From Candidatus Aquabacterium excrementipullorum (GTDB taxonomy: Bacteria > Pseudomonadota > Gammaproteobacteria > Burkholderiales > Burkholderiaceae_C): DNA of 40,894 nucleotides. Position numbers and translations under genes: made by a program. Of the stretch, positions 12,433-26,750 are shown piece by piece. The notes under the pieces were generated by a model. The model was not told the origin of the DNA. It made no database searches and saw only the letters and a program-made list of their open reading frames with translations. The stretch lies in the NCBI GenBank assembly GCA_019112875.1, contig DXIO01000102.1, forward strand, positions 1-40,894. Direction: 5' to 3'. Position 1 is the stretch's first letter; every line of letters starts with the position of its first letter.

Positions 12433-13284
12433 ATGCCTTCGAACCTCACCCCCAACAGTGCGCCGGTGTCCCACGATGCCGAATCCAGCAATGCGCTGGG
12501 CGAGTTCCTGCACGCCTGCCGTGATCGCCTGAGCCCGCGTGATGTGGGCCTGCCTCAGGGTGCCCGCCGTCGTGCGCCCGGCCTGCGCCGCGAAGAGGTG
12601 GCCACGCTGTGCGGCATCAGCCCCACCTGGTACACCTGGATCGAGCAGGGGCGAACGCGCGCCGTGTCCACCGAAACCTTGGGCGCTTTGGCGCGTGGGC
12701 TGCTGCTGTCGGCGGCCGAGCGCGCCTACCTGTTCGAGCTGGCCGCCCGGTCGCTGCCGACGGCCGCCAGTACGGGGGCGGCCGATGACGAGCATCTGCC
12801 CTCGCTGAACGCGCTGGTGAATGCGGTGCGCACCCCGGCCTATGTGCTCGACCGCCACTGGGATGCCGTGGCCTGGAACCGGCCGGCCGCGCAGCTGTTC
12901 GAAGACTGGTTGGGCGGCGGGGCCAAGCGCACGGCCCAGGCGCCGGGCAGCCGCAACCTGCTGCGCTACGTGTTCCTGCACGCGGGCGCGCCGGCCCTGA
13001 TCGGCGATTGGGACGAGCGCGCGCGCCGCCTGGTGGCCGAGTACCGCGCAGACACGGCCTCGTGGCGCGACGATCCGGTCGCCCAGGCGCTGGTGGACGA
13101 GCTGCAATGGGCCAGCCCGGCCTTCAAGGCCGCGTGGCGTTCTCAAGCCGTGCTCTCGCGCGAGGGCGGGCTGCGGGGCTTCGAGCACCCGCGCCTGGGC
13201 CACCGCGAGTACGAGCAGTTCACGCTGCGTGTGGCCCAGCACCCGGCGCTCAAGCTGATCGTGCTCACGCCGCGGGCGGCCTGA
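12433..13284 (+). CDS. XRE-family regulator with MmyB-like ligand-binding domain
   Basis: 283 residues from the ATG at 12433. An N-terminal helix-turn-helix (about residues 20-90) carries the typical RRAPGLRREEVATLCGIS start and the TWYTWIEQGR recognition helix. The C-terminal MmyB ligand-binding domain has its usual AYVLDRHWDAVAWNRPA opening and the closing GHREYEQFTLRV plus LKLIVLTP. MmyB-type proteins are thought to bind a hydrophobic ligand and regulate an adjacent gene. Here the divergent methyltransferase is the natural target. Confidence 0.93.
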   Translation: MPSNLTPNSAPVSHDAESSNALGEFLHACRDRLSPRDVGLPQGARRRAPGLRREEVATLCGISPTWYTWIEQGRTRAVSTETLGALARGLLLSAAERAYLFELAARSLPTAASTGAADDEHLPSLNALVNAVRTPAYVLDRHWDAVAWNRPAAQLFEDWLGGGAKRTAQAPGSRNLLRYVFLHAGAPALIGDWDERARRLVAEYRADTASWRDDPVAQALVDELQWASPAFKAAWRSQAVLSREGGLRGFEHPRLGHREYEQFTLRVAQHPALKLIVLTPRAA

Positions 13285-13325
13285 AAAGGGCTTGCTACAG
13301 TGGGGCACAAAAGCCAAGGAGCCCC

Positions 13326-14849
13326 ATGACGGAGACCAGTGATCGCAAGGCGGTGAGCCTGCCCGATGGCGACAGCCCGTGGATGCGGGTGTGGCAGCAC
13401 GAAGGAGCCGCCGCCGTGCCTGAGCCGGCCGCACCGGCGCGGGCGCCTCGCGTTGAGCGCGAAGGGTTGAGGCCCGGGGCTTTGGGGCCCTGGTGGGCGG
13501 CGGGGCTGCGCGCGGCCACCTTCCGGCCTGTGCAGGGCCTGGACGCCTTGCAGGCCACGCCAGCTGTGGTGGCCTGGCTGGTGGTGTTCAACCTGCTGGT
13601 GCAGGTGCTGTGGCAGCGGTTGGCCACCGAGGGGCCCGCGAACTTCCATTGGCAAGGGCTGTTGCAAGGCGGGCTCGACCTGGCCGTGCTGGCCTGGATC
13701 TGTGCCTGGGTGAGTGCGCCCGGGCCAGGGCGGATCCGCCTGCTGTGCCTGGTGCTGGGCATCGATTTCGTGGTCAGCCAAAGCAGCGGCCTGCTGTGGG
13801 TGCTGGTCAGCCAGGCGCAGGCCACCGGGCTGCTGCGCGACCTGGGCATGGGGCTGATCTGGCTGCTGTGGCTGGGGCCCATGGTGTGGTGGCTGGCGGC
13901 CCTGGCCACGGCGCTGTGGCGCCAGGGCGATCACCACGTGCGCCCCTGGCTGCTGGGCGTGGCTTTGCTGGCGGGCCTGATGGGATTGCATTGGGTGCTG
14001 CCTTCGCAGCAGGTCTGGACGCCTGCGCCAGTGGCCCGGGGCGACGACGATGAATTTGCCCGCCTATTCCTGACCGAGCCGGTGCTGCGTGCCCAGGCCA
14101 CCTTGCTCGATCAGCAACTGGCCGCGCTCAAGCCCCAGCGCCCCGGCGTGGTCGATGTGTACGTGCTGACCTTCGCGCCCTACGGTGAAGAAGAAGTCTT
14201 CCGCCGTGAAAGCGCCATGGTGGCCGAGGTGATGCGCCAGCGCTTCGACGCGCAGGGCCGCGCGCTGCAGTTGGTGAACAACCCGCGCACGGCCGAGCAA
14301 CTGCCCTGGGCCACCACCGACAACCTGCGCCGCGCACTGCAGCGCATCGGCCAGGTGATGGACCCGCGCGAGGACGTGCTCTTCATCCACATGACCTCGC
14401 ACGGCGCGCGCAACGGCCACCTGGCCACGGGCCTGTGGCCGCTCAAGCTCGATGCCGTCACGCCCGAATCGCTCAAGGCGGCGCTGGATGACGCCGGCAT
14501 CCGCCGCCGCGTGGTGTCGATCTCGGCGTGTTTCTCGGGCAGCTGGATCGCGCCGCTGGCCGACGAGGATTCCCTGGTGATGACGGCGGCCGACGCGGAC
14601 CACACCTCCTACGGCTGTGGCCGCCGCTCACCGCTGACCTTCTTTGGCAAGGCCATGTACGACGAACTGCTGCGCACGCAGACGCACTCCTTCACCGAGG
14701 CGCATGCCAAGGCGCGCGCGCTGATCCTGCAGCGCGAGGAAGAGGCCGGCAAGGACGATGGCTACTCGAACCCGCAGATCCGTGTGGGGTCGCGCATCGG
14801 GCCGGTGCTGGAGGCCTTGCAGCGCCGGCTGGAGGCACCGCCGCGCTGA
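13326..14849 (+). CDS. Membrane-anchored C13-family (legumain-type) cysteine peptidase
   Basis: 507 residues starting five bases after AAGGAG (13316-13321); the gene begins 42 bases after the XRE gene. Residues 1-75 are a Pro/Ala-rich cytosolic stretch. Five hydrophobic segments follow at about 80-96, 114-130, 138-160, 172-196 and 207-225. The C-terminal half is a clan CD peptidase domain with the His in MTSHG (H359) and the Cys in ISACFSG (C402). This is the same His-Gly/Ala-Cys arrangement as legumain and caspases. Such bacterial C13 proteins are widespread in proteobacteria but their substrates are mostly unknown. The peptidase domain probably faces the periplasm, as an odd number of segments precedes it. 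Confidence 0.9.
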   Translation: MTETSDRKAVSLPDGDSPWMRVWQHEGAAAVPEPAAPARAPRVEREGLRPGALGPWWAAGLRAATFRPVQGLDALQATPAVVAWLVVFNLLVQVLWQRLATEGPANFHWQGLLQGGLDLAVLAWICAWVSAPGPGRIRLLCLVLGIDFVVSQSSGLLWVLVSQAQATGLLRDLGMGLIWLLWLGPMVWWLAALATALWRQGDHHVRPWLLGVALLAGLMGLHWVLPSQQVWTPAPVARGDDDEFARLFLTEPVLRAQATLLDQQLAALKPQRPGVVDVYVLTFAPYGEEEVFRRESAMVAEVMRQRFDAQGRALQLVNNPRTAEQLPWATTDNLRRALQRIGQVMDPREDVLFIHMTSHGARNGHLATGLWPLKLDAVTPESLKAALDDAGIRRRVVSISACFSGSWIAPLADEDSLVMTAADADHTSYGCGRRSPLTFFGKAMYDELLRTQTHSFTEAHAKARALILQREEEAGKDDGYSNPQIRVGSRIGPVLEALQRRLEAPPR

Positions 14850-15334: not shown

Positions 15335-16078
15335 TCAGGGCCAGCGGTGCAGGGTGCCGCGCACGATGTCCAGCGCCACGTGGCGTGCCACCTCGTCGAT
15401 GAAGCGGGCGAAGTCCACATGGGCCGTGTCGTCGGCGCGGTCGGAGATGGTGCGCACCACGGCGAAGGGCACCTGGAAATCGTGGCAGACCTGGGCGAGC
15501 GCGGCGCCTTCCATCTCGACAGCCAGGGCGTCGGGCAGGGCCTGGCGCAGGGCGGTGCTTTCGCTGGCGCTGGAGACGAAGCGGTCGCCGCTGACGATCA
15601 GGCCCTGGTGCACGGTGGCCGGCGTGTCCTTCAGCAGACGCGTGCCATGGCCGGAGGCATGGCTCAGGGCCTCGCGGGCCGCCGCGCATACGGCGCCGGA
15701 CAAGGCCGGGTCGGTGGGAAGCCGCGACTTGCCCAGCCCCGGGATCTGGTGCCGGGGGAACAGCGGCGAGGCGTCCATGTCGTGCTGCAGCAGCTCGGTG
15801 GCCACCACCGCGTCGCCCACCTGCACACCCGCGCCCAGCCCGCCGGCCACACCGACGAAGACCACGGCCTGCGCTTCGAACTCGGTGAGCAGCAGGGTGG
15901 TGGTGATGGCCGCGGCCACCTTGCCGATGCCCGAGAGCACGGCGACCAGCTCGCGGCCCTCCCAGTGCCCGACCCAGAAGTCGCGGCCCGCGCGCTGCAC
16001 CCGGCTTTCGTCGGGCATCGCGTCGAGCAAGGTCTGCAGTTCCTGCGGCATGGCTGCCACGATGGCCAGGCGCCCCAT
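15335..16078 (-). CDS. mtnN: 5'-methylthioadenosine/S-adenosylhomocysteine nucleosidase
   Basis: 247 residues from the ATG at 16078 (GRLAIVAAMPQEL start). The PNP/UDP phosphorylase-fold motifs are present: SGIGKVAAAITTTLLL, FVGVAGGLGAGVQVGD, the ribose-binding acidic motif VEMEGAALAQV and the catalytic aspartate in TISDRADD. The enzyme cleaves methylthioadenosine and S-adenosylhomocysteine to adenine plus thioribose or homocysteine derivatives in the cytosol, relieving product inhibition of methyltransferases. It is divergent from the yjfI-pspA operon and probably transcribed together with the MAPEG gene. Confidence 0.93.
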   Translation of the reverse strand: MGRLAIVAAMPQELQTLLDAMPDESRVQRAGRDFWVGHWEGRELVAVLSGIGKVAAAITTTLLLTEFEAQAVVFVGVAGGLGAGVQVGDAVVATELLQHDMDASPLFPRHQIPGLGKSRLPTDPALSGAVCAAAREALSHASGHGTRLLKDTPATVHQGLIVSGDRFVSSASESTALRQALPDALAVEMEGAALAQVCHDFQVPFAVVRTISDRADDTAHVDFARFIDEVARHVALDIVRGTLHRWP

Positions 16079-16167
16079 GTGTGAAGTCCTTCCGTGCGGG
16101 TTCGGCGGGGATTGTCCCACCGCGCGACAGCATGATCTACCCCATGCGCGCCTCATCGCGAACCCTG

Positions 16168-16196
16168 TTGACATGTTATGTCGAAGGCCCTACATT
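16168..16196 (+). promoter_or_regulatory. Near-consensus sigma70 promoter of the yjfI-pspA-flotillin operon
   Basis: A perfect -35 (TTGACA, 16168-16173), a 17-base spacer and a good -10 (TACATT, 16191-16196) lie 45 bases before the first start codon. The predicted transcription start is near 16203. The perfect palindrome GACAT-GTT-ATGTC (16170-16182) overlaps the -35 and spacer, the usual place for a repressor. An inverted repeat CCGCCA/TGGCGG (16199-16223) lies at the start of the transcript. I see no sigma54 (GG-N10-GC) element, unlike classical psp operons. Confidence 0.72.
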
Positions 16197-16241
16197 GACC
16201 GCCATGGGACGTCGTTGTGGCGGCCTTCAACAGGGAGTGAC

Positions 16242-16658
16242 ATGAAACCACTGCTTGATCAACTCCAGGGACTGGACACGCTGATCAGCCAGGCCATGGG
16301 GGGCCTGTCGGTGCAACTGCAACCCATTCCGGGCGACGTGCCGGTGGTGCAGGTCACCATCGACGGGCGCCAGGAGCTGCCCATCTTCCTGACGGGCTCG
16401 CAGGCGCAGATCCTGTGCATGTGCTACCTGTGGACGGACGACGAAGTGAAGGCCGAGCGCCGTACCGAGCTGCTGGGCTGCCTGCTGGACCTGAACCCGT
16501 CGGTGCCGCTGTCGTCCTTCGGCCGCGTGGACGGGCGCTATGTGCTGTTCGGCGCGCTGTCGGCCGATGCCCGCGCCGAGGACATCGCCCAGGACGTGGC
16601 CGTGCTCAGCGACAACGCGCTCGATGCACTCGACGCGCTGTCGGAATTCCTGAACTGA
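16242..16658 (+). CDS. yjfI: DUF2170 (YjfI-like) protein
   Basis: 138 residues, acidic and soluble. The LPIFLTGSQAQILCMCYLW segment followed by RTELLGCLLDLNPSVPLSSFG is typical of the DUF2170/YjfI family. Family members are nearly always encoded directly before a pspA-like gene (YjfJ in E. coli). No enzymatic motif is visible. The ATG at 16242 follows GGGAG by four bases. It is the first gene of the six-gene operon, and its stop lies 17 bases before pspA. A role as PspA partner or regulator is inferred from conserved neighbourhood only. Confidence 0.92.
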   Translation: MKPLLDQLQGLDTLISQAMGGLSVQLQPIPGDVPVVQVTIDGRQELPIFLTGSQAQILCMCYLWTDDEVKAERRTELLGCLLDLNPSVPLSSFGRVDGRYVLFGALSADARAEDIAQDVAVLSDNALDALDALSEFLN

Positions 16659-16675
16659 TCGACCGAGGACACACC

Positions 16676-17380
16676 ATGACCGTCATCAAGAAACTGGTCA
16701 CCCTGTTGCGCGGCAGTGCCCGCGAGCTGGGCGAAAGCGTGGTCGATGCCAATGCCACGCGCATCTACGAGCAGGAGATCGTCGACGCGCGCCACAGCAT
16801 CGACCAGGCCCGTGGCGATCTCACCGGCGTGATGGCCAAGGAGATGCAGACCGCGCGCGCCATCGAGAAGCTCAAGGCCGAGGTGGGGCGCTACGAAGGT
16901 CTGGCGCTCGAAGCGCTCAACAAGACGCAGGAGGCGCTGGCGTTGGAGGTGGCCGCCAAGGTGGGTGCGCTCGAGCAGGAGCTCGACGAGCAGACCAAGG
17001 CCCACGCGTCCTACGCCGTGCAGGTGGCCAAGCTCAAGGCGCTGATCAAGTCGGCCGAGCTGCGCATCCGCGAGCACGAGCGCGAGCTGGCCATCGCCAA
17101 GACGACCGAGAGCGTCTACCGCGCCACGCGCTCGATCTCCGAGAACATCGGCAGCAGCGGCTCCAAGCTGGTCAACGCCCGGCAGTCGCTCGAGCGCATC
17201 AAGCAGCGCCATGAGGACCTGTCCGACCGCATGGCTGCCGCCGAATCGCTCGATGCCGAGTTCGGCCACGCCGCGCTCGAGAAGAAGCTGGCGGCCGCCG
17301 GCATCGGCGACGACGCCGACCGTGCCCGCAAGGTGATGGACCGCGTGCGCGCCCGCCAGGCCTCCGAAGGACAAGGATGA
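16676..17380 (+). CDS. pspA: PspA/IM30 family membrane-stress protein
   Basis: 234 residues, close to E. coli PspA (222). It is almost entirely helical coiled coil, rich in Glu, Lys, Ala and Arg, with the usual amphipathic N-terminal helix (MTVIKKLVTLLRG) and the SARELGESVVDANATRIYEQEI opening of YjfJ-type PspA proteins. The family forms ESCRT-III-like rods or arcs on the inner membrane and protects against proton leakage. The gene follows yjfI by 17 bases and overlaps the next gene by four bases (ATGA, 17377-17380), so translation is coupled. No pspF, pspB or pspC is visible in the window, so this is not the classical psp system. Confidence 0.95.
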   Translation: MTVIKKLVTLLRGSARELGESVVDANATRIYEQEIVDARHSIDQARGDLTGVMAKEMQTARAIEKLKAEVGRYEGLALEALNKTQEALALEVAAKVGALEQELDEQTKAHASYAVQVAKLKALIKSAELRIREHERELAIAKTTESVYRATRSISENIGSSGSKLVNARQSLERIKQRHEDLSDRMAAAESLDAEFGHAALEKKLAAAGIGDDADRARKVMDRVRARQASEGQG

Positions 17381-17748
17381 GCCTCAAGCGCAAGCCGGCG
17401 CGCTGGCAGGGCTCGGACGATGCGATCCGGGCCGTGCAGGTGGCCTTCGATGTGGAGCAGGCGGTGATGGAGGCGGTGCGTCATGCCGCCTTCAGCAACC
17501 ACCTGTCCACCTCGGACCAGATCCGGCAGTTGCTGGACCTGCCCACCTCGGCGCGCCCACAGCGCCCCCGGCTCACGGTGTCGCTCAGCGGCGCCGACTA
17601 CGAATTGCTGTCATCGCGGTACAAGCTGCCGGCCGACGACCGGCTGGGCATCAAGGAGCGTGTCACGCAGGAGCTCATCGCTTTTGCGCAGGGAGGTGAC
17701 AACGCGCCGCCCGGCAAGAAACCGGTCCCGCCCAAACGCCAGACCTGA
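17377..17748 (+). CDS. Small basic protein of unknown function in the pspA operon
   Basis: 123 residues, not recognised. The N-terminus is basic (SLKRKPARWQG). A helical segment with VEQAVMEAVRHAAFSNHLSTS and IRQLLDLP resembles a small DNA-binding or oligomerisation helix pair. A second helical part has LTVSLSGADYELLSSRYKL and a Pro/Lys-rich tail ends the protein. I see no signal peptide or membrane segment. The ATG overlaps the pspA stop, and AAGGACAAGG provides a ribosome site inside pspA. The overlap says it is made in step with PspA. It could be an operon-specific regulator (the paired-helix look and the palindrome at the promoter would fit) or a PspA adaptor. Both are guesses. Confidence 0.85.
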   Translation: MSLKRKPARWQGSDDAIRAVQVAFDVEQAVMEAVRHAAFSNHLSTSDQIRQLLDLPTSARPQRPRLTVSLSGADYELLSSRYKLPADDRLGIKERVTQELIAFAQGGDNAPPGKKPVPPKRQT

Positions 17749-17813
17749 CAAGGCCTGCCTAGAATCCAGAGACGACAAGTCATACAGGCCACAGGCCAAC
17801 AGAAGGGGAGTAC

Positions 17814-18449
17814 ATGGGAAGTTTTCTCGATGCGGCCATGGGGTATCCCACGGCGGTCTACACGACGCTGCTCGGTGTCGTGCTGCTGTACTGGGTGATG
17901 GCGGTGCTGGGCGTCGTGGACTTCGAGTCCAGCGGCATCGACATCGACCTGGACATGCACGCTGATGGCCAGATCGACGACCTGGGCGTGTTGGCCGGCT
18001 ACGTGGTGGGCTTCGGGCTCAACGGCGTGCCCTTCTCCATCGTGGTCAGCCTGATCGTGCTGGTGTCCTGGACGCTGAGTTGCCTGGCCGGCATGTGGGT
18101 GCTGGCCTGGGTGCCCACCGTGCTGTTCAAGGCCCTGGCCGGCACGGCCGTGCTGGTGGGCAGCTTCCTCACGTCCATTCCGGTCACGGCGCGCGTGGTG
18201 CGGCCGATGCGCGGCCTGTTCGTCAGCCACACGGCCATCGGCAATGCCGCGCTGGTCGGCCTGACATGCAAGGTGCTCACGCAATCCGTCGATGAGAAGC
18301 TGGGCCGCGCCGAGGTGGCGCGCCGTGGCGCCAACATCAACATCCGCGTCTGGGCCACCACGCCCAACACGCTGGCGCGGGGCGACAGTGCCCTGATCGT
18401 CGAGTACGACGAGGCCGCCGGCCGCTACCTGATCGAGTCCGAGCGCTGA
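17814..18449 (+). CDS. yqiJ: YqiJ-like inner-membrane protein with OB-fold (DUF1449)
   Basis: 211 residues. Hydrophobic segments lie at about 13-34, 72-100 and 103-125, with an acidic loop (DIDLDMHADGQIDD) between the first two. A C-terminal soluble region (about 140-211) has the beta pattern expected of the YqiJ OB-fold; GRAEVARRGANINIRVWA and LARGDSALIVEYD are typical. Strong ribosome site AAGGGGAG. Family members are encoded next to flotillins in many bacteria, and this one precedes a flotillin gene by 66 bases. The likely role is to act with the flotillin in membrane microdomains, comparable to NfeD-flotillin pairs. Confidence 0.9.
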   Translation: MGSFLDAAMGYPTAVYTTLLGVVLLYWVMAVLGVVDFESSGIDIDLDMHADGQIDDLGVLAGYVVGFGLNGVPFSIVVSLIVLVSWTLSCLAGMWVLAWVPTVLFKALAGTAVLVGSFLTSIPVTARVVRPMRGLFVSHTAIGNAALVGLTCKVLTQSVDEKLGRAEVARRGANINIRVWATTPNTLARGDSALIVEYDEAAGRYLIESER

Positions 18450-18515
18450 ACGCGCCGGGCCGATGTTTCTTTCTCGCTTTTTCGTTCCTGCTCACTGCCT
18501 ACAAGAGGACCCCTC

Positions 18516-20609
18516 ATGGAGCCGATCTTTGTCGCCGTTGGCGTGCTCACGCTGTTCATCCTGGGCATGTTCGCCATGCTCGCCAAGTTCTATCGCAAGA
18601 TCGAACAGGGGCATGCGCTCATCGTCAACACGCTCAGGGCCGAGCCCGAGGTGACCTTCACCGGGCGCATGGTCTACCCCATCATCCACAAGGCCGAGCT
18701 GATGGACATCTCGGTCAAGACCATCGAGATCGAGCGCAAGGGCCGCGAAGGCCTGATCTGCAAGGACAACATCCGCGCCGACATCGACGTGAAGTTCTTC
18801 GTGCGCGTCAACAAGACGGCCGACGACGTGCTCAAGGTGGCGCAGGGCATCGGCTGCACGCGCGCCTCCAGCCAGGAGACGCTGGAGGAGCTGTTCTCGG
18901 CCAAGTTCTCCGAGGCGCTCAAGACGGTCGGCAAGAACATGGACTTCATCGACCTCTACCAGGCCCGCGACCGCTTCCGCGACGAGATCGTCGCGCAGAT
19001 CGGTGACGACCTGTCTGGCTACGTGCTCGAAGACGCGGCCATCGACTTCCTGGAGCAGACGCCGTTGGGCGACCTGGACTCCAACAACATCCTCGATGCA
19101 CAGGGCATCAAGAAGATCACCGAGCTGACGGCGGTCGAGCACGTGCGCACCAACGAGCTGCGCCGCAACGAGGAAATGCAGATCAAGAAGAAGAACGTCG
19201 AGACGCAAGAAGCGCTGCTGGAGCTCGAACGCCAGCAGGCCGATGCGCAGGCCAAGCAGCAGCGCGAGGTGGCCACGGTGCGCGCTCGCGAGGAGGCCGA
19301 GACCGCCAAGATCCAGTCCGAAGAAAAGGCCAAGTCCGAGATGGCACGCCTGCAGGCCGAGCAGACCGTGGCCGTGCAGCAGGAGAACGTGCTGCGCGAG
19401 AAGGAAGTGGCCGAGAACAACCGCAAACGCGCCGTCGCCATCGAAGAAGAGAAGGTGACGCGTGCCCGCGAGCTGGAGGTGGTCGACCGCGAGAAGGAAG
19501 TCACCCTGCAGAAGATCGAGAAGGACAAGGCCGTCGAGGTGCAGAAGAAGGCGATTGCCGACGTGATCCGCGAGCGCATCGTGGTCGAGCGCACGGTGGC
19601 CGAACAAGAAGAAGCCATCAAGGAACTGCGTGTCGTGGCCGAGGCCGAGCGCACCAAGAAATCCACCATCATCATCGCCGAGGGCCAGGCCGAGGAGAAG
19701 CTGGTGCTGGAGGTGAAATCCGCCGAGGCGCAGGAGCGCCGGGCCCGCCACAAGGCCACCGAAGACCTGACGCTGGCCGACGCCAAGCTCAAGATCGCCG
19801 AGCGTGACGCCGAGGCCAAGAAGCGCGAGGCCGAGGGCGTGGAGGCCATCAGCGCCGCCACGGGCCTGGCCGCCGCCAAGGTGCAGATCGCGTCGGCACA
19901 GGCGCAGCTGGCGCAGTTCGAGGCCGAAGCCAGCGGCAAGCAGAAGGTGGGCCTGGCCGAGGTGCAGGTGAAGACGGCCGATGCCGACGCCACGCTCAAG
20001 GCGGGCCAGGCCGAAGCCCAGGTCAAGGAGCTGCTGGGCCTGGCCGAGGTGAAGGTGCGCACCGCCGACGCGGAAGCCGACCTGAAGGCCGGCGAGGTCG
20101 AGGCGCAGAACACCGAGGCCAAGTTCCATGCCGAAGCCAAGGGCCTGCGCGACAAGTTCGACGCCATGAAGGAGATGAGCGAGCACACCCGCGCGCACGA
20201 AGAGTTCCGCATGCGCCTGGAGAAATCGCACATCGAGACGCTCAAGGGCATCGATGCGCAGACCGTCATCGCCAAGGAGCAGGCCGAGGTGCTCAGCACC
20301 GCGCTGGGCAACGCCAAGATCGACATCGTGGGAGGCGAGGGCGGCTACTTCGACAGCTTCGTCAAGGCGCTGGCCGTGGGCAAGGGCATCGATGGCGTGA
20401 TCTCGCGCAGCAACACGCTGCAGATCGGGCTGAAGGACCACCTCAACGGTGAGCGCGACATGGTGGGCGACGTGCGCGAGCTGATCGGCGCGCTGGGCTC
20501 GTCGGCCGGCGAGCTGCAGAACCTGAGCGTGGCCGCCCTGATGGCCAAGGTGGCGCGTGATGGCGACGACAGCCAGAAGGCCGCACTGAAGACCTTGCTG
20601 GCCCGCTGA
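18516..20609 (+). CDS. yqiK: Flotillin-like SPFH-domain protein (YqiK-like)
   Basis: 697 residues, longer than E. coli YqiK (about 553). One N-terminal membrane segment (about 3-22) is followed by the SPFH domain (about 25-200) with YRKIEQGHALIVNTL at its start. A very long Ala/Glu/Lys coiled coil (about 210-570) with many EAE/AEA repeats comes next, including two tandem 29-residue units at 479-507 and 508-536, and then a mixed C-terminal domain. Ribosome site AGAGGA. Flotillins scaffold ordered inner-membrane patches and oligomerise through SPFH and coiled-coil regions. The next gene starts one base after its stop, so flotillin and the AAA+ protein are translated together, which suggests a physical complex. 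Confidence 0.94.
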   Translation: MEPIFVAVGVLTLFILGMFAMLAKFYRKIEQGHALIVNTLRAEPEVTFTGRMVYPIIHKAELMDISVKTIEIERKGREGLICKDNIRADIDVKFFVRVNKTADDVLKVAQGIGCTRASSQETLEELFSAKFSEALKTVGKNMDFIDLYQARDRFRDEIVAQIGDDLSGYVLEDAAIDFLEQTPLGDLDSNNILDAQGIKKITELTAVEHVRTNELRRNEEMQIKKKNVETQEALLELERQQADAQAKQQREVATVRAREEAETAKIQSEEKAKSEMARLQAEQTVAVQQENVLREKEVAENNRKRAVAIEEEKVTRARELEVVDREKEVTLQKIEKDKAVEVQKKAIADVIRERIVVERTVAEQEEAIKELRVVAEAERTKKSTIIIAEGQAEEKLVLEVKSAEAQERRARHKATEDLTLADAKLKIAERDAEAKKREAEGVEAISAATGLAAAKVQIASAQAQLAQFEAEASGKQKVGLAEVQVKTADADATLKAGQAEAQVKELLGLAEVKVRTADAEADLKAGEVEAQNTEAKFHAEAKGLRDKFDAMKEMSEHTRAHEEFRMRLEKSHIETLKGIDAQTVIAKEQAEVLSTALGNAKIDIVGGEGGYFDSFVKALAVGKGIDGVISRSNTLQIGLKDHLNGERDMVGDVRELIGALGSSAGELQNLSVAALMAKVARDGDDSQKAALKTLLAR
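19950..20123 (+). repeat. Tandem 87-bp in-frame repeat inside the flotillin gene
   Basis: Two adjacent 29-codon units begin at 19950 and 20037, each with GLAEV then TADA then LKAG at the same offsets. 19 of 29 residues match. The register keeps the coiled-coil heptads in phase, so the duplication lengthens the rod without breaking it. Confidence 0.8.
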
Positions 20610-20610
20610 G

Positions 20611-23600
20611 ATGAACGACACCCACCGGACGGACGCTGCGGACGCCACCGACAGCCTGGTGGCCGGCAGCGGCAGCTACGACCTGCTCAAGAAGCGGCTG
20701 GAACAGCAGGGCGCCGCGCTGCAGCAGCAGGCCCAGGCCCTCAACGAGGCCCGCGTGGCCGAGTTCGGCCGCGCTGACCAGGTGCTGCTGCTGCGCACCC
20801 GCGCCCGTACCGAGAACAACTGCGTGGCGCGCGACATCGTGCGCATCGGCGATGTGCTGCTGTTCGGCTACAACGTCTTCATCGGTTTGCGCAAGGAGAC
20901 GGCGGTCAGCGACGTGTTCGCGCTGTACCGTCTGGCCGAGCACGAGGGCGCCGACGAGCTGCAGCCCGTGCCCCTGGCCGGCAGCTTCCTCGAAGACAGC
21001 CGCTTCGTCTCGGATTTCCGCGAGCTGCACGCCTACTACAAGCACGCCACGCTGCTGCAGCTGCGCGTGACGCAGGACAAGCTGCTGGCCGCCTTCCAGA
21101 TCGGCCAGCAGGTGCACGACCTGCGCGTGTTCCGCTGGCAGATCGAGCGTGACGGCAGCGTGCGCTACGTGGATAACCGCGGCGAGCGCGACATCGCCCT
21201 GCCGCCCAGCCACGATTTCGAGTGGACGCCCACCACGCGCGACGACCACGTCGCCGGCCGCCATCCGCACATCAACGTGCTGGACACCGTCTTCGTCGAG
21301 ACGGTGGGCGGTGACCTGACCATCAAGGTCGAGAACAACACCGAGACCGGCCTGGGCATCTACAGCGAGCCGGTCGAGGACAAGAACCAGTCGCTCACCG
21401 ACGCCGACATCGCCTATGCCCGCCTGGGCATGCTGATCCTGCTGCGCGTGCGCCCCTACCGCGAGCAGACCACGCGCTACCTGGTCTACAACCAGCGCAC
21501 GCAGCAGGCCGAGCGGCTCGATGCCATCGGCGGCTCGTGCGTGCAGCTGCCCGAGGACCACGGCATCATCTTTCCTGGCGGCTACTACCTGCAATCGGGC
21601 GAGCACAAGCGCTTCGATCTGCCTCAGGACATGGTGGCCGGCCTGCGCTTCAAGCGCATGGTCAAGTCGCCCAACGGCGAGGACGTGGCCTATGTGTTCT
21701 ACCAGCCGGGCTCGGGCCACTACGCGCTCTTCACCTACAACCTGATCAACAAGACGCTGAGCACGCCCATCGTGGCCAATGGCTACGCGCGCTTCGCCGA
21801 CGGCCGCATGCTGGTGTTCCAGGTGGACCGGGGCGAGCCCACGCGCGTGCATCCGATGCAGCTGTGGCAGACCCCTTTCGCCACCGAGGACCACGCCACC
21901 GCGCAGCCCGCGGCCCAGGGCTTCTTCGGCAAGATCGGCAACGCCGAGCTGGTGCGTGGCGTCTCCGACCTGATGGGCATCGCCCGCGCGGTGCGCGAGC
22001 AGGCGCCCACGCGCACCGCCTACGACGACCTGATTCGCCAGTGCACGCGCGTGTCGGATGCCTACTTCTGGCTCGAAGCCCCCGAGGCGGGTGGCCTGTC
22101 GGACTTGCTGCGCCAGATCGCTGACGGCGCGCGCGCCACGCTGGCCGAGTTCGAGAAGGTCGACAGCATCCGCCGCGACACGGCCCGTGCGCTGGCGCAG
22201 GCCGAGGCCGAGCAGCACGCCCTGCTGACCGACATCGCCAGCACGATCTGGCGCCTGCCGGCCGATTTCGTCAAGGCACTGGGCCGCCTGCGCGAACGGC
22301 GCGGGCGTCTGCAGCTGGTGCGCGAGCTGCGCTATGTGGACACGGCCCGCGTGGAGGCGATGGACGCCGCGCTGGCCACCGAGCAGCAGCGCGTGGGCGA
22401 GCGCGCCCTGCAGTTCCTGGCCGATCCCACCGCGTTCGACGCGCAGCGCCAGGCCCTGAACGGCCTGGCCACCGAGTTGCCCGCCGCCACGACCACGCCG
22501 GTGCTCGACAAGCTGCTCGCCACCCTGGACGACGAAGCCGCCGGCCTGGACCTGCTCAGCGAACAGCTCGGCACCCTGCCTGGCGGCGATGCCGTGGTGC
22601 GCACCACCATCCTGGACAGCATCTCGGGCCTGTACGCCGACATCAACCGGCTGCGGGCCGATGCCCGTGTGCGTCGCAAGACCATGGGCGTGGGCGAGGC
22701 GCGCGCGGAGTTCGGCGCGCAGTTCAAGCTCTTCGGCCAGGCCGTCGAGAACGCGCTGGAATTCGCCGACAGCCCCGAGAAATGCGACGAGGCCCTGACC
22801 CGCCTGCTGGCCCAGCTCGAAGAGCTCGAAGGCCGCTTCGGCGAGCACGAGGCCTTCATCGCCGACATCGCGGCCAAGCGCGAATCGATGGTCGAGGCCC
22901 TGGCCGCGCGCCGCCAGATGCTGGTGGATGCCCGCCAGCGCCGCGCCCAGGCCATGGCCGAGGCGGGTGCCCGCATCCTCGAAGGCGTGCCGCGCCGCGT
23001 GGCGCAGATGCGCGAGCTGGCCGATGTGCACAGCTACTTCGCGTCGGACGTGCTGCTGGCCAAGCTGGGCAAGGTCATCGCCGATTTGCGCGCCATGGGC
23101 GCCTCGGTGCAGGCCGATGACCTGGCCACGCGCCTGCAGACCGCGCGCGACATGGCCGTGCGCGCCGTGCGTGACCAGCGCGAGCTGGCCGTCGATGGCG
23201 GCAACACGCTCAAGCTGGGTCGCCACGCCTTCACCATCAACCGCCAGGCGATCGACCTGACCCTGGTGTCGCATGGCGAGGGCCAGGCTTTCCAGATCAC
23301 CGGCACGGACTACCTGGCCCCGGTGCACGACGACAGCCTGCTGGCGCTGCGCCCCTATTGGGCGCAGGCCCTGGTGTCCGAGACGGCCGATCTGTCGCGC
23401 GCCGAGTACCTGGCGGGCCACCTGCTCAAGGGCTGGCTCTCGGGCCAGGCCCGCGATGGCGAGGCCGCGATGGACTGGGCCCAGGTGCGCGCCCTGTTCA
23501 CCGAAGACCCGATGCACCCGACCTTGCTGGAGCAGGTGCGCCGCGAGGCCGCAGCCCGTTACCAGGAGGGCTACCAGAAGGGCGTGCACGACGAGGACGC

Positions 23601-25794
23601 GCTGCGCCTGCTGGCCGCGCTGGTCGCCATGCAGGATGCCGCTGGCCTGTTGGCCTGGGGCCCGGCCGAACGTGCGCTGGCCCTGATGTACTGGCAGGAG
23701 GGGCTCGATGAGGCCGGGCGCGATGCCCTGCAGCGCCAGGGGCGCGCCTGCCTGCAGATGCAGGCGCTGTTCGGCCAGGCCCAGGCTTTGCAGGATCTGG
23801 AAGGCACGCTCGGCCAGGCCCTGCAAGCCTTCATGGACACGGCCATGCCCGAGCTGGCGCAGGCCGGGGAGGGCCATGCCGCCATGGGCCGCGCCGCCGC
23901 CGCTTACCTGGTGCGCCAGGTCAGCGTAGGGCATGGCACCGAGGCCTGGGCCGTGTCCGGCCTGGGTGATGACCTGGCCCAGGCCCTGCTGCGAGAGCTG
24001 GAGCGCCATGGCCGCCAAGACGAGGTGCGCCGCGACCTGGACGCCGCGCCCGTGGCCGAGCGCTGGCGCATCGCCCGCCAGTGGGTACAGGCTTTTGCCG
24101 CCACGCAGGACGCCGCCGCGCAGGCCTGGGTGGACGATGCCGCCAGCGTGCTGGCCTTGCCCGCGCGACGCCAGCGCATCAACGCCACGCTGGACCAAAC
24201 CGTGGAGGGGCTGCGCAGCGAACACCCGCGCATCGACGGCGGCCACATGGCGCTGAACCTCAACGACTACTGGCGCCGCCTCGAGCACCACCATGCCCAC
24301 ACCGTGCCGGCCTATCAGTCGCTGCAGCACCGCCGCCATGAACTGCTGGCACAGGAGCGCCGCCGCCTGCGCCTGAACCAGTTCCAGGCCAAGCCGCTGT
24401 CGTCCTTCGTGCGCAACCGCCTGATCGACGAGGTCTACCTGCCGCTGCTGGGCGACAACCTGGCCAAGCAGCTCGGCGCGGCGGGCGATGCCAGCCGCAG
24501 CGACCGCATGGGCCTGCTGCTGCTGATCTCGCCGCCGGGCTATGGCAAGACCACGCTGCTGGAGTACGTGGCCGACCGCCTGGGCCTGGTCTTCGTGCGC
24601 ATCAACTGCCCGGCGCTGGGCCACGCCGTCACCTCGCTGGACCCGAGTGCGGCACCCAACAGCGCCGCGCGCCAGGAGCTCGACAAGCTCAACCTGGGGC
24701 TGGCGATGGGCAACAACGTGATGCTCTACCTGGACGACATCCAGCACACCGACCCGGAGTTCCTGCAGAAGTTCATCGGCCTGGCCGACGGCACGCGCCG
24801 CATCGAAGGCGTGTGGAACGGCGAGCCGCGCACGCACGACCTGCGCGGCAAGCGCTTCGCCATCGCCATGGCCGGCAACCCCTACACCGAGTCGGGCGAT
24901 GTCTTCAAGATCCCCGACATGCTGGCCAACCGCGCCGACATCCACAACCTGGGCGATGTGCTCTCGGGCCACGATGCGCTGTTCGCGCTGTCCTACCTGG
25001 AAAACTGTCTGACGTCGCACCCGCTGCTGCTGCCCCTGGCCTCGCGCGAGCCGGCCGATGTGCACCGGCTGGTGGCCCTGGCTCAGGGCGAAGAGGTGGC
25101 GGCCAGCGCGTTCTCGCACAGCTACAGCGCACTCGAACTCGAAGAGCTCTCAGCCATGTTCAAGCGGCTGTTCCAGGTGCGCGACCTGCTGCTCAAGGTG
25201 AACCTGGCCTACATCGCCTCGGCCGCGCAGAAGGACAGCTACCGCACCGAGCCGCCCTTCAAGCTGCAGGGCAGTTACCGCAACATGGGCAAGCTGGCCG
25301 CCAAGGTCACGCCGCTGATGCGCGAGGACGAGATCGATGCGCTGTTGCGCGACCACTACCGCGGCGAGGCCCAGACCCTGACCACCGGCGCCGAGGAGAA
25401 CCTGCTCAAGCTGTCGCAGCTGCTGGGCCGTCCCACGCCCGATGAGGCGACGCGATGGCGTGAGATCTGCGACGAGTTCGTGCGCCAGCGCAAGCTGGGC
25501 GGTGACGATGCCGACGGCAGCACGCGCATCGCCTCGACCGTGCTCGATGTGGCCCGCGCCGTGGAGCACCTCAAGCCCTCACCCGAGCCGCCAGGCCCGT
25601 CGGACGGCCTGCGGCTGGCCGAGGCCGTGCTGGAGATGGCGGTGACCTACCGGCAGCTGATCATGCCGCTGGTGGCCGCCACCGAACGCCGGCTCGACCT
25701 GGACCAGTCCATCCGCAAGGAGGTCGAGCGCGTGGCCGAGCAGCTCGAGAACCGACGGCAGGCGCAGCGGCCCACGCCGCCTGACGCGGGCTGA
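20611..25794 (+). CDS. Giant AAA+ ATPase ('DNA repair ATPase' family) coupled to flotillin
   Basis: 1727 residues. The AAA+ core is at about 1260-1500: Walker A PPGYGKTT (1308-1315), Walker B LYLDDIQH (1372-1379, acidic pair 1375-1376) and sensor-1 Asn in MAGNP (N1423), followed by an ANRAD segment that may hold the Arg finger. The first ~500 residues are beta-rich and look like a repeat or propeller-type domain. The middle (about 500-900) is charged and helical, with probable coiled coil. The family is usually labelled 'DNA repair ATPase' (DUF3686-type), a name without firm support. Its constant position after a flotillin argues for a membrane-remodelling or chaperone role with the SPFH scaffold. 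It starts one base after the flotillin stop and ends at a stem-loop, closing the operon. Confidence 0.93.
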   Translation: MNDTHRTDAADATDSLVAGSGSYDLLKKRLEQQGAALQQQAQALNEARVAEFGRADQVLLLRTRARTENNCVARDIVRIGDVLLFGYNVFIGLRKETAVSDVFALYRLAEHEGADELQPVPLAGSFLEDSRFVSDFRELHAYYKHATLLQLRVTQDKLLAAFQIGQQVHDLRVFRWQIERDGSVRYVDNRGERDIALPPSHDFEWTPTTRDDHVAGRHPHINVLDTVFVETVGGDLTIKVENNTETGLGIYSEPVEDKNQSLTDADIAYARLGMLILLRVRPYREQTTRYLVYNQRTQQAERLDAIGGSCVQLPEDHGIIFPGGYYLQSGEHKRFDLPQDMVAGLRFKRMVKSPNGEDVAYVFYQPGSGHYALFTYNLINKTLSTPIVANGYARFADGRMLVFQVDRGEPTRVHPMQLWQTPFATEDHATAQPAAQGFFGKIGNAELVRGVSDLMGIARAVREQAPTRTAYDDLIRQCTRVSDAYFWLEAPEAGGLSDLLRQIADGARATLAEFEKVDSIRRDTARALAQAEAEQHALLTDIASTIWRLPADFVKALGRLRERRGRLQLVRELRYVDTARVEAMDAALATEQQRVGERALQFLADPTAFDAQRQALNGLATELPAATTTPVLDKLLATLDDEAAGLDLLSEQLGTLPGGDAVVRTTILDSISGLYADINRLRADARVRRKTMGVGEARAEFGAQFKLFGQAVENALEFADSPEKCDEALTRLLAQLEELEGRFGEHEAFIADIAAKRESMVEALAARRQMLVDARQRRAQAMAEAGARILEGVPRRVAQMRELADVHSYFASDVLLAKLGKVIADLRAMGASVQADDLATRLQTARDMAVRAVRDQRELAVDGGNTLKLGRHAFTINRQAIDLTLVSHGEGQAFQITGTDYLAPVHDDSLLALRPYWAQALVSETADLSRAEYLAGHLLKGWLSGQARDGEAAMDWAQVRALFTEDPMHPTLLEQVRREAAARYQEGYQKGVHDEDALRLLAALVAMQDAAGLLAWGPAERALALMYWQEGLDEAGRDALQRQGRACLQMQALFGQAQALQDLEGTLGQALQAFMDTAMPELAQAGEGHAAMGRAAAAYLVRQVSVGHGTEAWAVSGLGDDLAQALLRELERHGRQDEVRRDLDAAPVAERWRIARQWVQAFAATQDAAAQAWVDDAASVLALPARRQRINATLDQTVEGLRSEHPRIDGGHMALNLNDYWRRLEHHHAHTVPAYQSLQHRRHELLAQERRRLRLNQFQAKPLSSFVRNRLIDEVYLPLLGDNLAKQLGAAGDASRSDRMGLLLLISPPGYGKTTLLEYVADRLGLVFVRINCPALGHAVTSLDPSAAPNSAARQELDKLNLGLAMGNNVMLYLDDIQHTDPEFLQKFIGLADGTRRIEGVWNGEPRTHDLRGKRFAIAMAGNPYTESGDVFKIPDMLANRADIHNLGDVLSGHDALFALSYLENCLTSHPLLLPLASREPADVHRLVALAQGEEVAASAFSHSYSALELEELSAMFKRLFQVRDLLLKVNLAYIASAAQKDSYRTEPPFKLQGSYRNMGKLAAKVTPLMREDEIDALLRDHYRGEAQTLTTGAEENLLKLSQLLGRPTPDEATRWREICDEFVRQRKLGGDDADGSTRIASTVLDVARAVEHLKPSPEPPGPSDGLRLAEAVLEMAVTYRQLIMPLVAATERRLDLDQSIRKEVERVAEQLENRRQAQRPTPPDAG

Positions 25795-25805
25795 TCCGCC
25801 GGGGC

Positions 25806-25838
25806 CGGCCTGCACAGCCGGGGGCTTTCGGCAGGCCG
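25806..25838 (+). terminator. Stem-loop at the end of the pspA-flotillin operon
   Basis: CGGCCTGC (25806-25813) pairs perfectly with GCAGGCCG (25831-25838), with an inner AGCC/GGCT helix. It starts 12 bases after the ATPase stop. There is no T-run, so it may stabilise the 3' end or work with Rho rather than be a classical terminator. Confidence 0.55.
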
Positions 25839-25904
25839 ATGCCGTGCGCTCGCCGGGTGCTGGCATCATGGGCGCACAAGCATCCAACACGCCTGGGGAC
25901 CCGC

Positions 25905-26582
25905 ATGTACACGCTCTACATCGCCAACAAGAACTACTCGTCCTGGTCGCTGCGGCCCTGGGCCCTGCTGACCGAACTGGGCATCCCGTTCAAGGAGCAA
26001 CTGTTCCCCTTCGGCGCCGGCTCCAACTGGGACGAGTTCCGCCAGTTCTCGCCCAATGGCAAGGTGCCCTGCCTGCTGGACGATGGCCTGACGGTGTGGG
26101 AATCGCTGGCCATCGTGGAGTTCCTGGCCGAGCGCCATCCGGGCGTGTGGCCTGAGCAATCGGCCGCGCGGGCCTGGGCGCGGTCGGCCGCGGCCGAGAT
26201 GCACGCGGGGTTCAGCACCTTGCGCACGCGGTGCCCCATGAGTTGCGGCATCCGCGTGCGCCTGCACGAGATCGGCCCTGCGCTCAAGACTGATCTGGCA
26301 CGCCTGGACGAGCTCTGGCGCGATGGCCTGGACAAGTTCGGCGGCCCCTTCCTGGCCGGCGACACCTTCACGGCAGTCGATGCCTTCTTCGCGCCCGTGG
26401 CCTTCCGCGTGCAGACCTACGGCGTGCCCCTGAGCGACGAATCGCTGGCCTATGTGAAGCGCCTGCTGGACACGCGCGCGCTGCAGCAATGGCAGCAGCA
26501 GGCCCTGGCCGAGCCCTGGCGCGAGCCAGGCCACGAGGCTGATTGCTTGGCCTACGGCACGCTGGTGGCCGATTTGCGCTAA
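25905..26582 (+). CDS. Glutathione S-transferase family protein
   Basis: 225 residues from the ATG at 25905. An N-terminal thioredoxin-fold domain (about 1-80) has KNYSSWSLRPWALL, the glutathione-binding start of this subfamily, and WESLAIVEFLAERHPG with the conserved acidic/Ser contact. The all-helical C-terminal domain follows. The Ser residues in NYSSWS are the likely catalytic position. The family conjugates or reduces electrophiles with glutathione in the cytosol. Its start is 110 bases after the ATPase gene and past the stem-loop, so it probably has its own transcription. A GC stem plus T4 follows its stop. Confidence 0.92.
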   Translation: MYTLYIANKNYSSWSLRPWALLTELGIPFKEQLFPFGAGSNWDEFRQFSPNGKVPCLLDDGLTVWESLAIVEFLAERHPGVWPEQSAARAWARSAAAEMHAGFSTLRTRCPMSCGIRVRLHEIGPALKTDLARLDELWRDGLDKFGGPFLAGDTFTAVDAFFAPVAFRVQTYGVPLSDESLAYVKRLLDTRALQQWQQQALAEPWREPGHEADCLAYGTLVADLR

Positions 26583-26594
26583 GCCTGCGCGACG

Positions 26595-26616
26595 GGGCGC
26601 AGCCCGCCGCCCTTTT
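26595..26616 (+). terminator. Possible rho-independent terminator after the GST gene
   Basis: GGGCG (26595-26599) pairs with CGCCC (26608-26612) around an eight-base loop and is followed by TTTT. The short stem and short T-run make it weak. Confidence 0.45.
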
Positions 26617-26750
26617 GGTGGTGCGTGTTTATTTCGGATGGCGGTCGGATGGGGGGCCGCTGCGCCTGCGTGGCCGAATCCGTGTGGAAGTCCACAATCC
26701 CGCGCTGCGCGTGTTTTCGGCATCCTTGCGGCCATTGCGCGAGGTGTGCC

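What the first reader, a model, noticed from the sequence alone, without database searches (positions are those of the whole stretch)
16168..25838. Six-gene PspA-flotillin-AAA+ membrane-stress operon with an unknown small member
One promoter, very tight spacing (4-base overlap, 1-base gap) and a closing stem-loop bind yjfI, pspA, a 123-residue unknown, yqiJ, flotillin and a 1727-residue AAA+ protein into one unit. PspA (ESCRT-III-like), an SPFH scaffold and an AAA+ motor would parallel the ESCRT-III/Vps4 logic of a membrane polymer plus a disassembling ATPase. Associations between PspA, flotillin and AAA ATPases are noted in comparative genomics, but as far as I know the whole six-gene machine has not been characterised biochemically.
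Basis: partly seen in the sequence, partly recalled or inferred. Interest (0 to 1): 0.82.

Follow-up and report, generated by a model that had tools for sequence, protein, structure and literature searches.

The report
PspA-flotillin operon with own DNA-binding switch
The six-gene membrane-stress operon is real and largely described already, but its unknown small protein looks like a DNA-binding switch that comes with its own recognition site and, in some related bacteria, may command other membrane-stress genes as well.

Summary
In detail: yjfI, pspA, a 123-aa ORF, a yqiJ-like gene, a flotillin and a 1727-aa AAA+ gene lie in order behind one sigma-70-like promoter. The closing stem-loop is no better than chance. 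The operon type is known: Ravi 2024 described it from gene neighbourhoods, Wallart 2024 studied the bac operon of P. aeruginosa. New here is the 123-aa protein. It is conserved (78 named loci, 54 with all six genes in order) and looks like two ribbon-helix-helix (RHH) units. Its carriers have a palindrome, GACATNNNATGTC, over the -35 box of yjfI: 86 of 88 loci at <=1 mismatch, against 1 of 18 yjfI loci in genomes without it. In several genomes the site also precedes a split-off yqiJ-yqiK-AAA operon, pspA, NfeD-SPFH operons or HtpX-like genes. Of 11 long-YjfI operons without the small gene, 8 carry a different palindrome. The small member is most likely an autoregulator of a PspA/SPFH membrane-stress regulon; binding and repression are inferred, not shown. 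The Vps4-like machine is untested; the ATPase core resembles MoxR-type NorQ.

The parts
16168..16196 (+). sigma-70-like promoter TTGACA-17-TACATT
   Evidence: only promoter-like site found in 15900-26700; same arrangement (TTGACA made by the site, TAnnnT 16-18 bases on) in 67 of 86 loci, 0.18 loci expected in shuffles
16170..16182 (.). palindrome GACATGTTATGTC, proposed operator, overlapping the -35 box
   Evidence: the only exact copy in the 4.75-Mb genome (about 1 expected by composition genome-wide, 3e-5 in a 166-base stretch); conserved upstream of yjfI in 86 of 88 loci with the small gene at <=1 mismatch
16242..16658 (+). yjfI/bacA, DUF2170 (CesT/Tir-type chaperone fold in its P. aeruginosa relative); short form without N-terminal extension
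   Evidence: Pfam PF09938 E 9.2e-28; alignment with long forms (long forms among themselves)
16676..17380 (+). pspA/bacB, PspA/IM30 family
   Evidence: Pfam PF04012 E 2.5e-31
17377..17748 (+). 123-aa protein, proposed tandem ribbon-helix-helix autoregulator
   Evidence: conserved family, 78 named loci; two helix pairs each after a conserved extended stretch; sub-threshold RHH hits in some members; co-occurrence with the palindrome
17814..18449 (+). yqiJ-like membrane protein (bacC position)
   Evidence: gene order and homologues in a 15-row alignment; weak YqiJ_N hit in 1 of 15
18516..20609 (+). flotillin-like SPFH protein yqiK (bacD position)
   Evidence: Pfam Band_7 E 1.1e-8; homologues 54-87% identical
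20611..25794 (+). large AAA+ protein: DUF3686, DUF7902, C-terminal AAA+ core
   Evidence: Pfam; model of residues 1226-1625, pLDDT 83, nearest MoxR-type NorQ

Best explanation
This is a PspA-flotillin-AAA+ membrane-stress operon of the bac/YjfI type that carries its own transcriptional switch. The 123-aa protein (its start overlaps the pspA stop, so it is probably made in step with PspA) is most likely a tandem ribbon-helix-helix protein that binds GACATNNNATGTC over the -35 box of the yjfI promoter and represses the operon. In some relatives the same site also precedes separate PspA, SPFH/NfeD, HtpX-like and DUF350 genes, so there it would govern a membrane-stress regulon. Shown: gene order, conservation, palindrome, co-occurrence, position on the promoter. 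Inferred: that the small protein is what binds; that it represses; that membrane stress relieves it, perhaps through YjfI-PspA sequestering it. In long-YjfI operons without the small gene, the N-terminal extension of YjfI and a different palindrome may do the same job. The effector part (PspA polymer, flotillin scaffold, MoxR-like ATPase acting on membrane complexes) is taken over from earlier predictions.
For: Palindrome upstream of yjfI: exact in 77 and <=1 mismatch in 86 of 88 loci with the small gene adjacent (one locus, L083/L202, counted twice), against 0 exact and 1 with one mismatch of 18 yjfI loci in genomes without it; shuffles 0.5-1.2% at <=1 mismatch. The two misses (G337, G464) and G544 and G493 carry CCCATAWTATGTC there instead, and their small proteins have a variant first strand. 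In the set chosen by DUF2170/DUF3686, not by the small gene, 15 of 15 genomes with the small gene have a site of either form before a yjfI; of 18 yjfI loci without it one has (G566, CCCAT form; its contig ends about 120 bases after the expected start of the gene) (Fisher p 1.5e-8). Families f1 and f163 hold both states and the site follows the gene. It forms the -35 TTGACA in 80 of 86 loci. In 40 genomes of named carrier loci (41 given, 1 not held) GACATNNTATGTC occurs in 38, the reversed control in 2; in 26 it lies only at the fetched locus. In G400 sites precede yjfI, a split yqiJ-yqiK-AAA operon, pspA-pspC, SPFH, NfeD-SPFH and DUF350 genes; in G664 and G665 NfeD-SPFH, in G493 a separate pspA, in four Oceanimonas M48 (HtpX-like) and Tim44 genes. 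RHH signs: FitA-like_RHH in 6 of 62 members (best E 7e-4); NikA-like E 1e-4 and RHH_1 E 0.016 on the two units of one of 7 further members; CopG and Arc align on 33-34 residues at 0.8-1.0 A.
Against: No RHH family reaches its cut-off and most members give no RHH hit; the AF2 monomer is mediocre (pLDDT 71, pTM 0.36) and shows no strands; Foldseek E-values are all above 1; the two units do not align to each other by profile (hhalign probability 0.1). Binding is not shown. The palindrome as such is not specific: exact copies occur somewhere in 13 of 20 genomes without the small gene too. I looked at 28 exact sites away from yjfI; 7 lie inside ORFs, 5 of them in one Massilia MAG, and 21 further sites in the carrier genomes were not looked at. 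The split yqiJ-yqiK-AAA operon of G500 has no exact site. By composition about one site is expected in the own genome. The strand/operator covariation may be common descent: other members with altered strands keep GACAT.
Confidence: 0.75

Rival explanations
1. The palindrome is read by a transcription factor encoded elsewhere, and the small protein has another task in the operon (for example an adaptor that binds PspA or YjfI).
For: The small gene overlaps pspA by four bases, as a partner subunit might; RHH hits are all below cut-off and absent from most members.
Against: The site before yjfI is present with the small gene and absent without it, also inside family f1; in 26 of 40 carrier genomes GACATNNTATGTC occurs only at this locus, which suits a locally encoded regulator.
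Confidence: 0.15
2. One reading: the six products form one ESCRT-III/Vps4-like machine with the small protein as a structural part.
For: PspA is an ESCRT-III homologue (PMC8281802, abstract in listing); an AAA+ protein and a flotillin are encoded beside it; Ravi 2024 proposes ATP-dependent remodelling for PspA-AAA+ pairs (passages).
Against: The small gene also occurs with only yjfI and pspA, without yqiJ, yqiK and AAA+ within the fetched stretch, in 7 loci not cut by a contig end, and yqiJ-yqiK-AAA occurs without it (L014, L016). The AAA+ core is nearest to MoxR-type NorQ among the rows shown, no MIT domain.
Confidence: 0.08
3. The palindrome is only a conserved promoter shape and the correlation with the small gene reflects shared ancestry.
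For: It overlaps the -35 box in 80 of 86 loci; kinship was not corrected for.
Against: A second copy 15 bases away occurs in 34 pairs of sites over the 86 loci; the conserved letters go far beyond TTGACA; the site recurs before other membrane-stress genes.
Confidence: 0.02

Closest known systems
CesT/Tir(DUF2170)-PspA operon with band-7/flotillin, YqiJ and AAA+ (Ravi et al. 2024, PMC11237479; section 19 read whole, other passages)
   Same: Same gene content: DUF2170, PspA, YqiJ-type TM protein, flotillin, AAA+ with N-terminal propeller/coiled coil.
   Different: Section 19 does not mention the 123-aa member in this operon class; a word search of the main text finds no 'palindrom' or 'operator'. 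It notes an RHH transcription factor as last gene of some operons of its second, polyamine-linked class.
bacABCDEF operon of Pseudomonas aeruginosa (Wallart et al. 2024, PMC10948618; abstract, section 3.6 and passages seen)
   Same: YjfI-type BacA, PspA-type BacB in a six-gene operon shown by RT-PCR; the bacA mutant accumulates the other Bac proteins.
   Different: The authors propose a sigma-54 promoter; BacA is of the long type (the NCBIfam BacA model has 206 positions); no small RHH-like gene is described in the passages I saw.
Canonical psp system (PspF-PspABC) of E. coli
   Same: PspA as effector of membrane stress with a dedicated switch.
   Different: Control by the sigma-54 activator PspF there (passage, abstracts); here a sigma-70-like promoter with an overlapping palindrome.
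Ribbon-helix-helix repressors (CopG, Arc, FitA/VapB, NikA; tandem form TraY recalled)
   Same: Two strand-helix-helix-like units, short palindrome, gene position suited to autoregulation.
   Different: Below every family cut-off; single chain with two units; linked to PspA.
MoxR AAA+ ATPases (NorQ, CbbQ)
   Same: Nearest solved folds of the AAA+ core in the rows shown.
   Different: Here fused behind DUF3686 and DUF7902 in a 1727-aa protein.

Membership tests
DUF2170-PspA-YqiJ-flotillin-AAA+ operon class (Ravi 2024 / bac) | DUF2170 gene followed by PspA_IM30 gene | tested here: met
   Pfam above cut-off for both
DUF2170-PspA-YqiJ-flotillin-AAA+ operon class (Ravi 2024 / bac) | YqiJ-type TM protein and band-7 flotillin | tested here: inconclusive
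   Band_7 met; YqiJ_N only in 1 of 15 homologues, E 0.006
DUF2170-PspA-YqiJ-flotillin-AAA+ operon class (Ravi 2024 / bac) | large AAA+ protein with N-terminal propeller/coiled coil | tested here: inconclusive
   DUF3686 E 5e-201 and AAA over cut-off; that DUF3686 is the propeller was not tested
ribbon-helix-helix transcription factors | match to a curated RHH family above cut-off | tested here: not met
   FitA-like_RHH in 6 of 62 members, best E 7e-4; NikA-like E 1e-4 (22.9 bits, cut-off 27) in 1 of 7 further members; the window protein has none
ribbon-helix-helix transcription factors | beta-alpha-alpha unit pairing its strand in a dimer | tested here: inconclusive
   two helix pairs each preceded by a conserved extended stretch; strands not formed in the monomer model; CopG 34 residues at 1.0 A; dimers could not be modelled
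ribbon-helix-helix transcription factors | binds a short palindromic operator | not testable with these tools
   candidate operator found; binding needs the bench
ESCRT-III/Vps4 system | Vps4-type AAA+ ATPase with MIT domain | tested here: not met
   no MIT hit at E <= 1; in the 50 fold matches shown of 1516 the first are NorQ, then RuvB, Cdc6, Lon; by sequence Rix7/VCP at best, E 1e-4 (60 of 103 rows shown)
ESCRT-III/Vps4 system | ESCRT-III-type polymer protein | tested here: met
   PspA_IM30; PspA/IM30 homologous to ESCRT-III by PMC8281802 (abstract in listing)
PspF-controlled psp operon | sigma-54 (-24/-12) promoter | tested here: not met
   best GG-N10-GC match 6 of 12 scored letters at -240 in the window's 250 upstream bases; a sigma-70-like site instead

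The most novel reading that the evidence does not exclude
A new regulon: a tandem RHH protein encoded between pspA and yqiJ reads GACATNNNATGTC (CCCATAWTATGTC in one clade) and switches PspA, flotillin/SPFH-NfeD, HtpX-like and DUF350 genes together, independently of PspF and sigma-54; in the bac-type operons a MazE-like domain fused to YjfI, with the palindrome YTTACATGTAAR, has taken its place, so that YjfI/BacA would be a repressor-chaperone and the link between PspA state and transcription.
Probability: 0.5. Interest if true: 0.78.

Novelty: new variant of a known kind. Interest (0 to 1): 0.62.

Why it matters
How the YjfI-PspA-flotillin systems are switched on is open: the bac study infers negative control by BacA and proposes a sigma-54 site, without a shown mechanism. 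A named candidate regulator and operator make that testable with a band shift and a reporter, and the sites give a first list of genes that some of these bacteria may treat as one membrane-stress response, linking PspA with SPFH/NfeD proteins and an HtpX-like protease.

Tried and rejected
Sigma-54 promoter upstream of yjfI as proposed for P. aeruginosa: in 76 upstream regions the best GG-N10-GC matches score mostly 4-9 of 12 (once 10) at differing places, some regions have none. Anti-phage system: PADLOC gives only two weak matches, both of PspA to long coiled-coil proteins. Plasmid link of the small gene: one record of 72,556, 23.5% identity, E 0.05, dismissed. Internal repeat by profile: not significant. 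Residue-level code between the first strand and the operator: considered and dropped, since D25/E25 does not follow GACAT/CCCAT. My first count took L195 and L196 as misses; they and two genomes with the small gene on another contig (G544, G493) carry the CCCAT form. Sites in the Massilia MAG, L264 and L266 were judged chance because they lie in ORFs. The pattern was typed with K where R was meant and does not allow an initial A, so it misses some long-YjfI sites (for example those of G479).

Selection to bear in mind: the 78 loci were fetched with peptide patterns that include the first strand, so its conservation among them is partly by selection; the palindrome was not selected for. The letter counts are of sites chosen at <=1 mismatch and prove no conservation by themselves. 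The further sites that I opened were mostly those with AT-rich centres (9 of 30 away from yjfI in carrier genomes), G650 C23 and G656 C104 were not opened. No shuffle control was run for YTTACATGTAAR.
Full report
1. What is in the window. Six genes on the + strand lie between 16242 and 25794: yjfI (DUF2170), pspA, a 123-aa ORF, a yqiJ-like gene, a band-7 flotillin and a 1727-aa DUF3686/DUF7902/AAA+ gene. Gaps are 17, -4, 65, 66 and 1 bases. The one sigma-70-like site found in the region is at 16168-16196. The stem-loop after the last gene is not better than shuffles and has no T run. A phosphorylase-family gene reads away on the left and a glutathione S-transferase gene follows on the right.

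2. Already in print. Ravi et al. 2024 (PMC11237479; section 19 read whole; other passages) describe the CesT/Tir(DUF2170)-PspA pair with flotillin, AAA+ and YqiJ, and propose a chaperone-like role at the membrane; they also note an RHH transcription factor as last gene of some operons of another, polyamine-linked class. Wallart et al. 2024 (PMC10948618; abstract, passages and section 3.6) show by RT-PCR a six-gene operon bacA-F in P. aeruginosa, solve BacA, and find the other Bac proteins accumulated in the bacA mutant. A 2026 paper predicts BacA-BacB binding (PMC13092808, passages). I found no mention of the 123-aa member in the flotillin/AAA+ class nor of its operator (paper searches, listings only; open-licence papers only; figures and supplements of Ravi 2024 were not seen).

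3. Spread. DUF3686 is in 9 of 200 genomes of the family, and a homologue of the AAA+ protein in 1 of 42 of the genus, the own one: a patchy, accessory operon. Of the eight other family loci, two have all six genes with the small one (62 and 69% identical, same 4-base overlap), four have a long YjfI and no small gene, two have only yqiJ-yqiK-AAA. A scan of 84,980 species with the small protein gave 78 named loci (Variovorax, Hydrogenophaga, Acidovorax, Azoarcus, Chitiniphilus, Massilia, Tahibacter, Oceanimonas and others). By profile 54 of 78 have all six in order; 9 have only yjfI-pspA-small, 7 of these not cut by a contig end within the fetched stretch; 13 others lack one or more genes, some at contig ends; 1 has small and yqiJ only and 1 the small gene alone. 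So the small gene goes with yjfI-pspA rather than with the flotillin/ATPase half.

4. The small protein. Two conserved blocks, RAVQVAFD + two helices and RPRLTVSLS + two helices. AF2 (62 sequences) gives helices 28-40, 45-52, 72-82, 89-106 at modest confidence, strands not formed. RHH families ring below cut-off: FitA-like_RHH in 6 of 62 members, best E 7e-4; of seven further members one gives NikA-like E 1e-4 on unit 1 and RHH_1 E 0.016 on unit 2, six give no RHH hit. Foldseek: CopG 34 residues at 1.0 A, Arc 33 at 0.8 A, single-chain Arc, VapB, but all E above 1 and helix-turn-helix proteins rank first. The two units do not match each other by profile.

5. The operator. Upstream of yjfI the carriers share GACATNNNATGTC, often twice, most often 15 bases apart. 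With the small gene adjacent: exact 77, <=1 mismatch 86 of 88; without the small gene in the genome: 0 exact, 1 with one mismatch, of 18 (L083 and L202 are one locus; 3 of 91 loci had no yjfI and were dropped). The site makes the -35 TTGACA in 80 of 86 loci and a -10-like hexamer follows at 16-18 bases in 67 (0.18 expected; this set of 86 leaves out L195 and L196). In the own genome it is the only exact copy, though about one is expected by composition. In 40 genomes of named carriers (41 given, L054 not held) GACATNNTATGTC occurs in 38, the reversed control in 2; 26 have it only at the fetched locus, 11 also or only elsewhere, one (G656) was not placed. In the four Oceanimonas the yjfI site has one mismatch and the exact sites lie elsewhere.

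6. A less biased set. 27 of 369 class genomes have DUF2170; with the eight family genomes this makes 35. Fifteen have the small gene, and all 15 have a site before a yjfI: 11 of the GACAT form (G440 with one mismatch at the small-bearing locus and exact at a second yjfI), four (G337, G464, G544, G493) of the form CCCATAWTATGTC. Of 18 yjfI loci without the small gene one (G566) has the CCCAT form, and its contig ends about 120 bases after the place where the gene would start. Fisher p 1.5e-8, not corrected for kinship; families f1 and f163 hold both states and the site follows the gene. Against this, exact copies of the palindrome occur somewhere in 13 of the 20 genomes without the small gene: only the place before yjfI is specific.

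7. Regulon. In G400, exact sites precede yjfI, a DUF350 operon (36 bases), a yqiJ-yqiK-AAA operon on another contig (95; its AAA+ gene has an in-frame stop), a 100-aa ORF followed by pspA and pspC (158), an SPFH gene (48) and a 73-aa ORF followed by NfeD and SPFH (50). In G664 and G665 they precede NfeD-SPFH operons (19-21), in G493 a separate pspA (111), in four Oceanimonas genomes an M48 (HtpX-like) gene (26-28) and a Tim44-domain gene (43) (Tim44 checked by Pfam in three of four). Others: NhaA-like, CutA1, an ABC transporter. Of 28 sites away from yjfI that I opened, 19 are promoter-placed, 1 overlaps a start, 7 lie inside ORFs, 1 is unclear (my sorting). Of 30 such sites in the carrier genomes I opened only 9, mostly with AT-rich centres; 21 were not looked at, so the regulon is a lead with examples, not a count. 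G500's split yqiJ-yqiK-AAA operon has no exact site.

8. The other branch. Of the 18 yjfI loci without the small gene, 11 have a long YjfI. Eight of these 11 carry ATTACATGTAAT-like palindromes at <=1 mismatch, usually two 13-26 bases apart around TTGACA (three are weaker, 2-4 mismatches; no shuffle control; places in genomes); the seven short-YjfI loci have 3-5 mismatches, and their regulator is unknown. The extra N-terminal residues match MazE-like at E <= 1 in 8 of 10 scanned, one of them at 6e-4 and the rest at 0.1-0.24, all below cut-off. The solved DUF2170 chain (8q8o) matches only from residue 74 of a long form. This could explain the negative control by BacA. P. aeruginosa itself was not looked at.

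9. The ATPase. Residues 1226-1625 model well (pLDDT 83, pTM 0.74) and come nearest to NorQ hexamers (MoxR class; TM-score about 0.43-0.56 over the target, 0.28-0.38 over the query), then RuvB, Cdc6, Lon and CbbQ in the rows shown. This suggests a MoxR-like remodeller rather than a Vps4 relative; 'works like Vps4' is untested.

10. Verdict. Operon: known kind. New: the small member as probable RHH autoregulator, its operator, leads to a regulon, and a second palindrome in the long-YjfI branch.

Noticed in passing
L022 13275-13820, L032 14720-15283, L179 9249-9797: A Zn_ribbon_TFIIB protein of about 182 aa lies between yqiK and the AAA+ gene in some relatives and divergent from yqiJ in G400 with the palindrome in between; the window lacks it between yqiK and AAA+.
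   Followed up: partly
L065, L067, L076-L079, L081-L084, L086, L088-L091, gene just before the small gene: In Lysobacterales and Oceanimonas loci the pspA position holds a strongly diverged, often shorter coiled-coil relative that BLAST at E 1e-4 did not find; a profile finds most of them.
   Followed up: partly
L011, L012, L211, L212, L214-L217, upstream of yjfI: Palindrome like ATTACATGTAAT around the -35 box of long-YjfI operons.
   Followed up: partly
L032 13412-14467: A 351-aa gene resembling a PDDEXK-type nuclease by eye sits between yqiK and the AAA+ gene, as if inserted.
   Followed up: no
G400 C42 (L104, L179): The AAA+ gene of this genome has an in-frame TGA although its operon keeps the palindrome.
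   Followed up: no
window 13008-14849: ORF with HMTSHG and SACFSGSW stretches that look like a C13-type peptidase, by eye only.
   Followed up: no
L257 3861-8345: Exact palindrome and a second near copy directly before an ABC transporter gene pair.
   Followed up: partly
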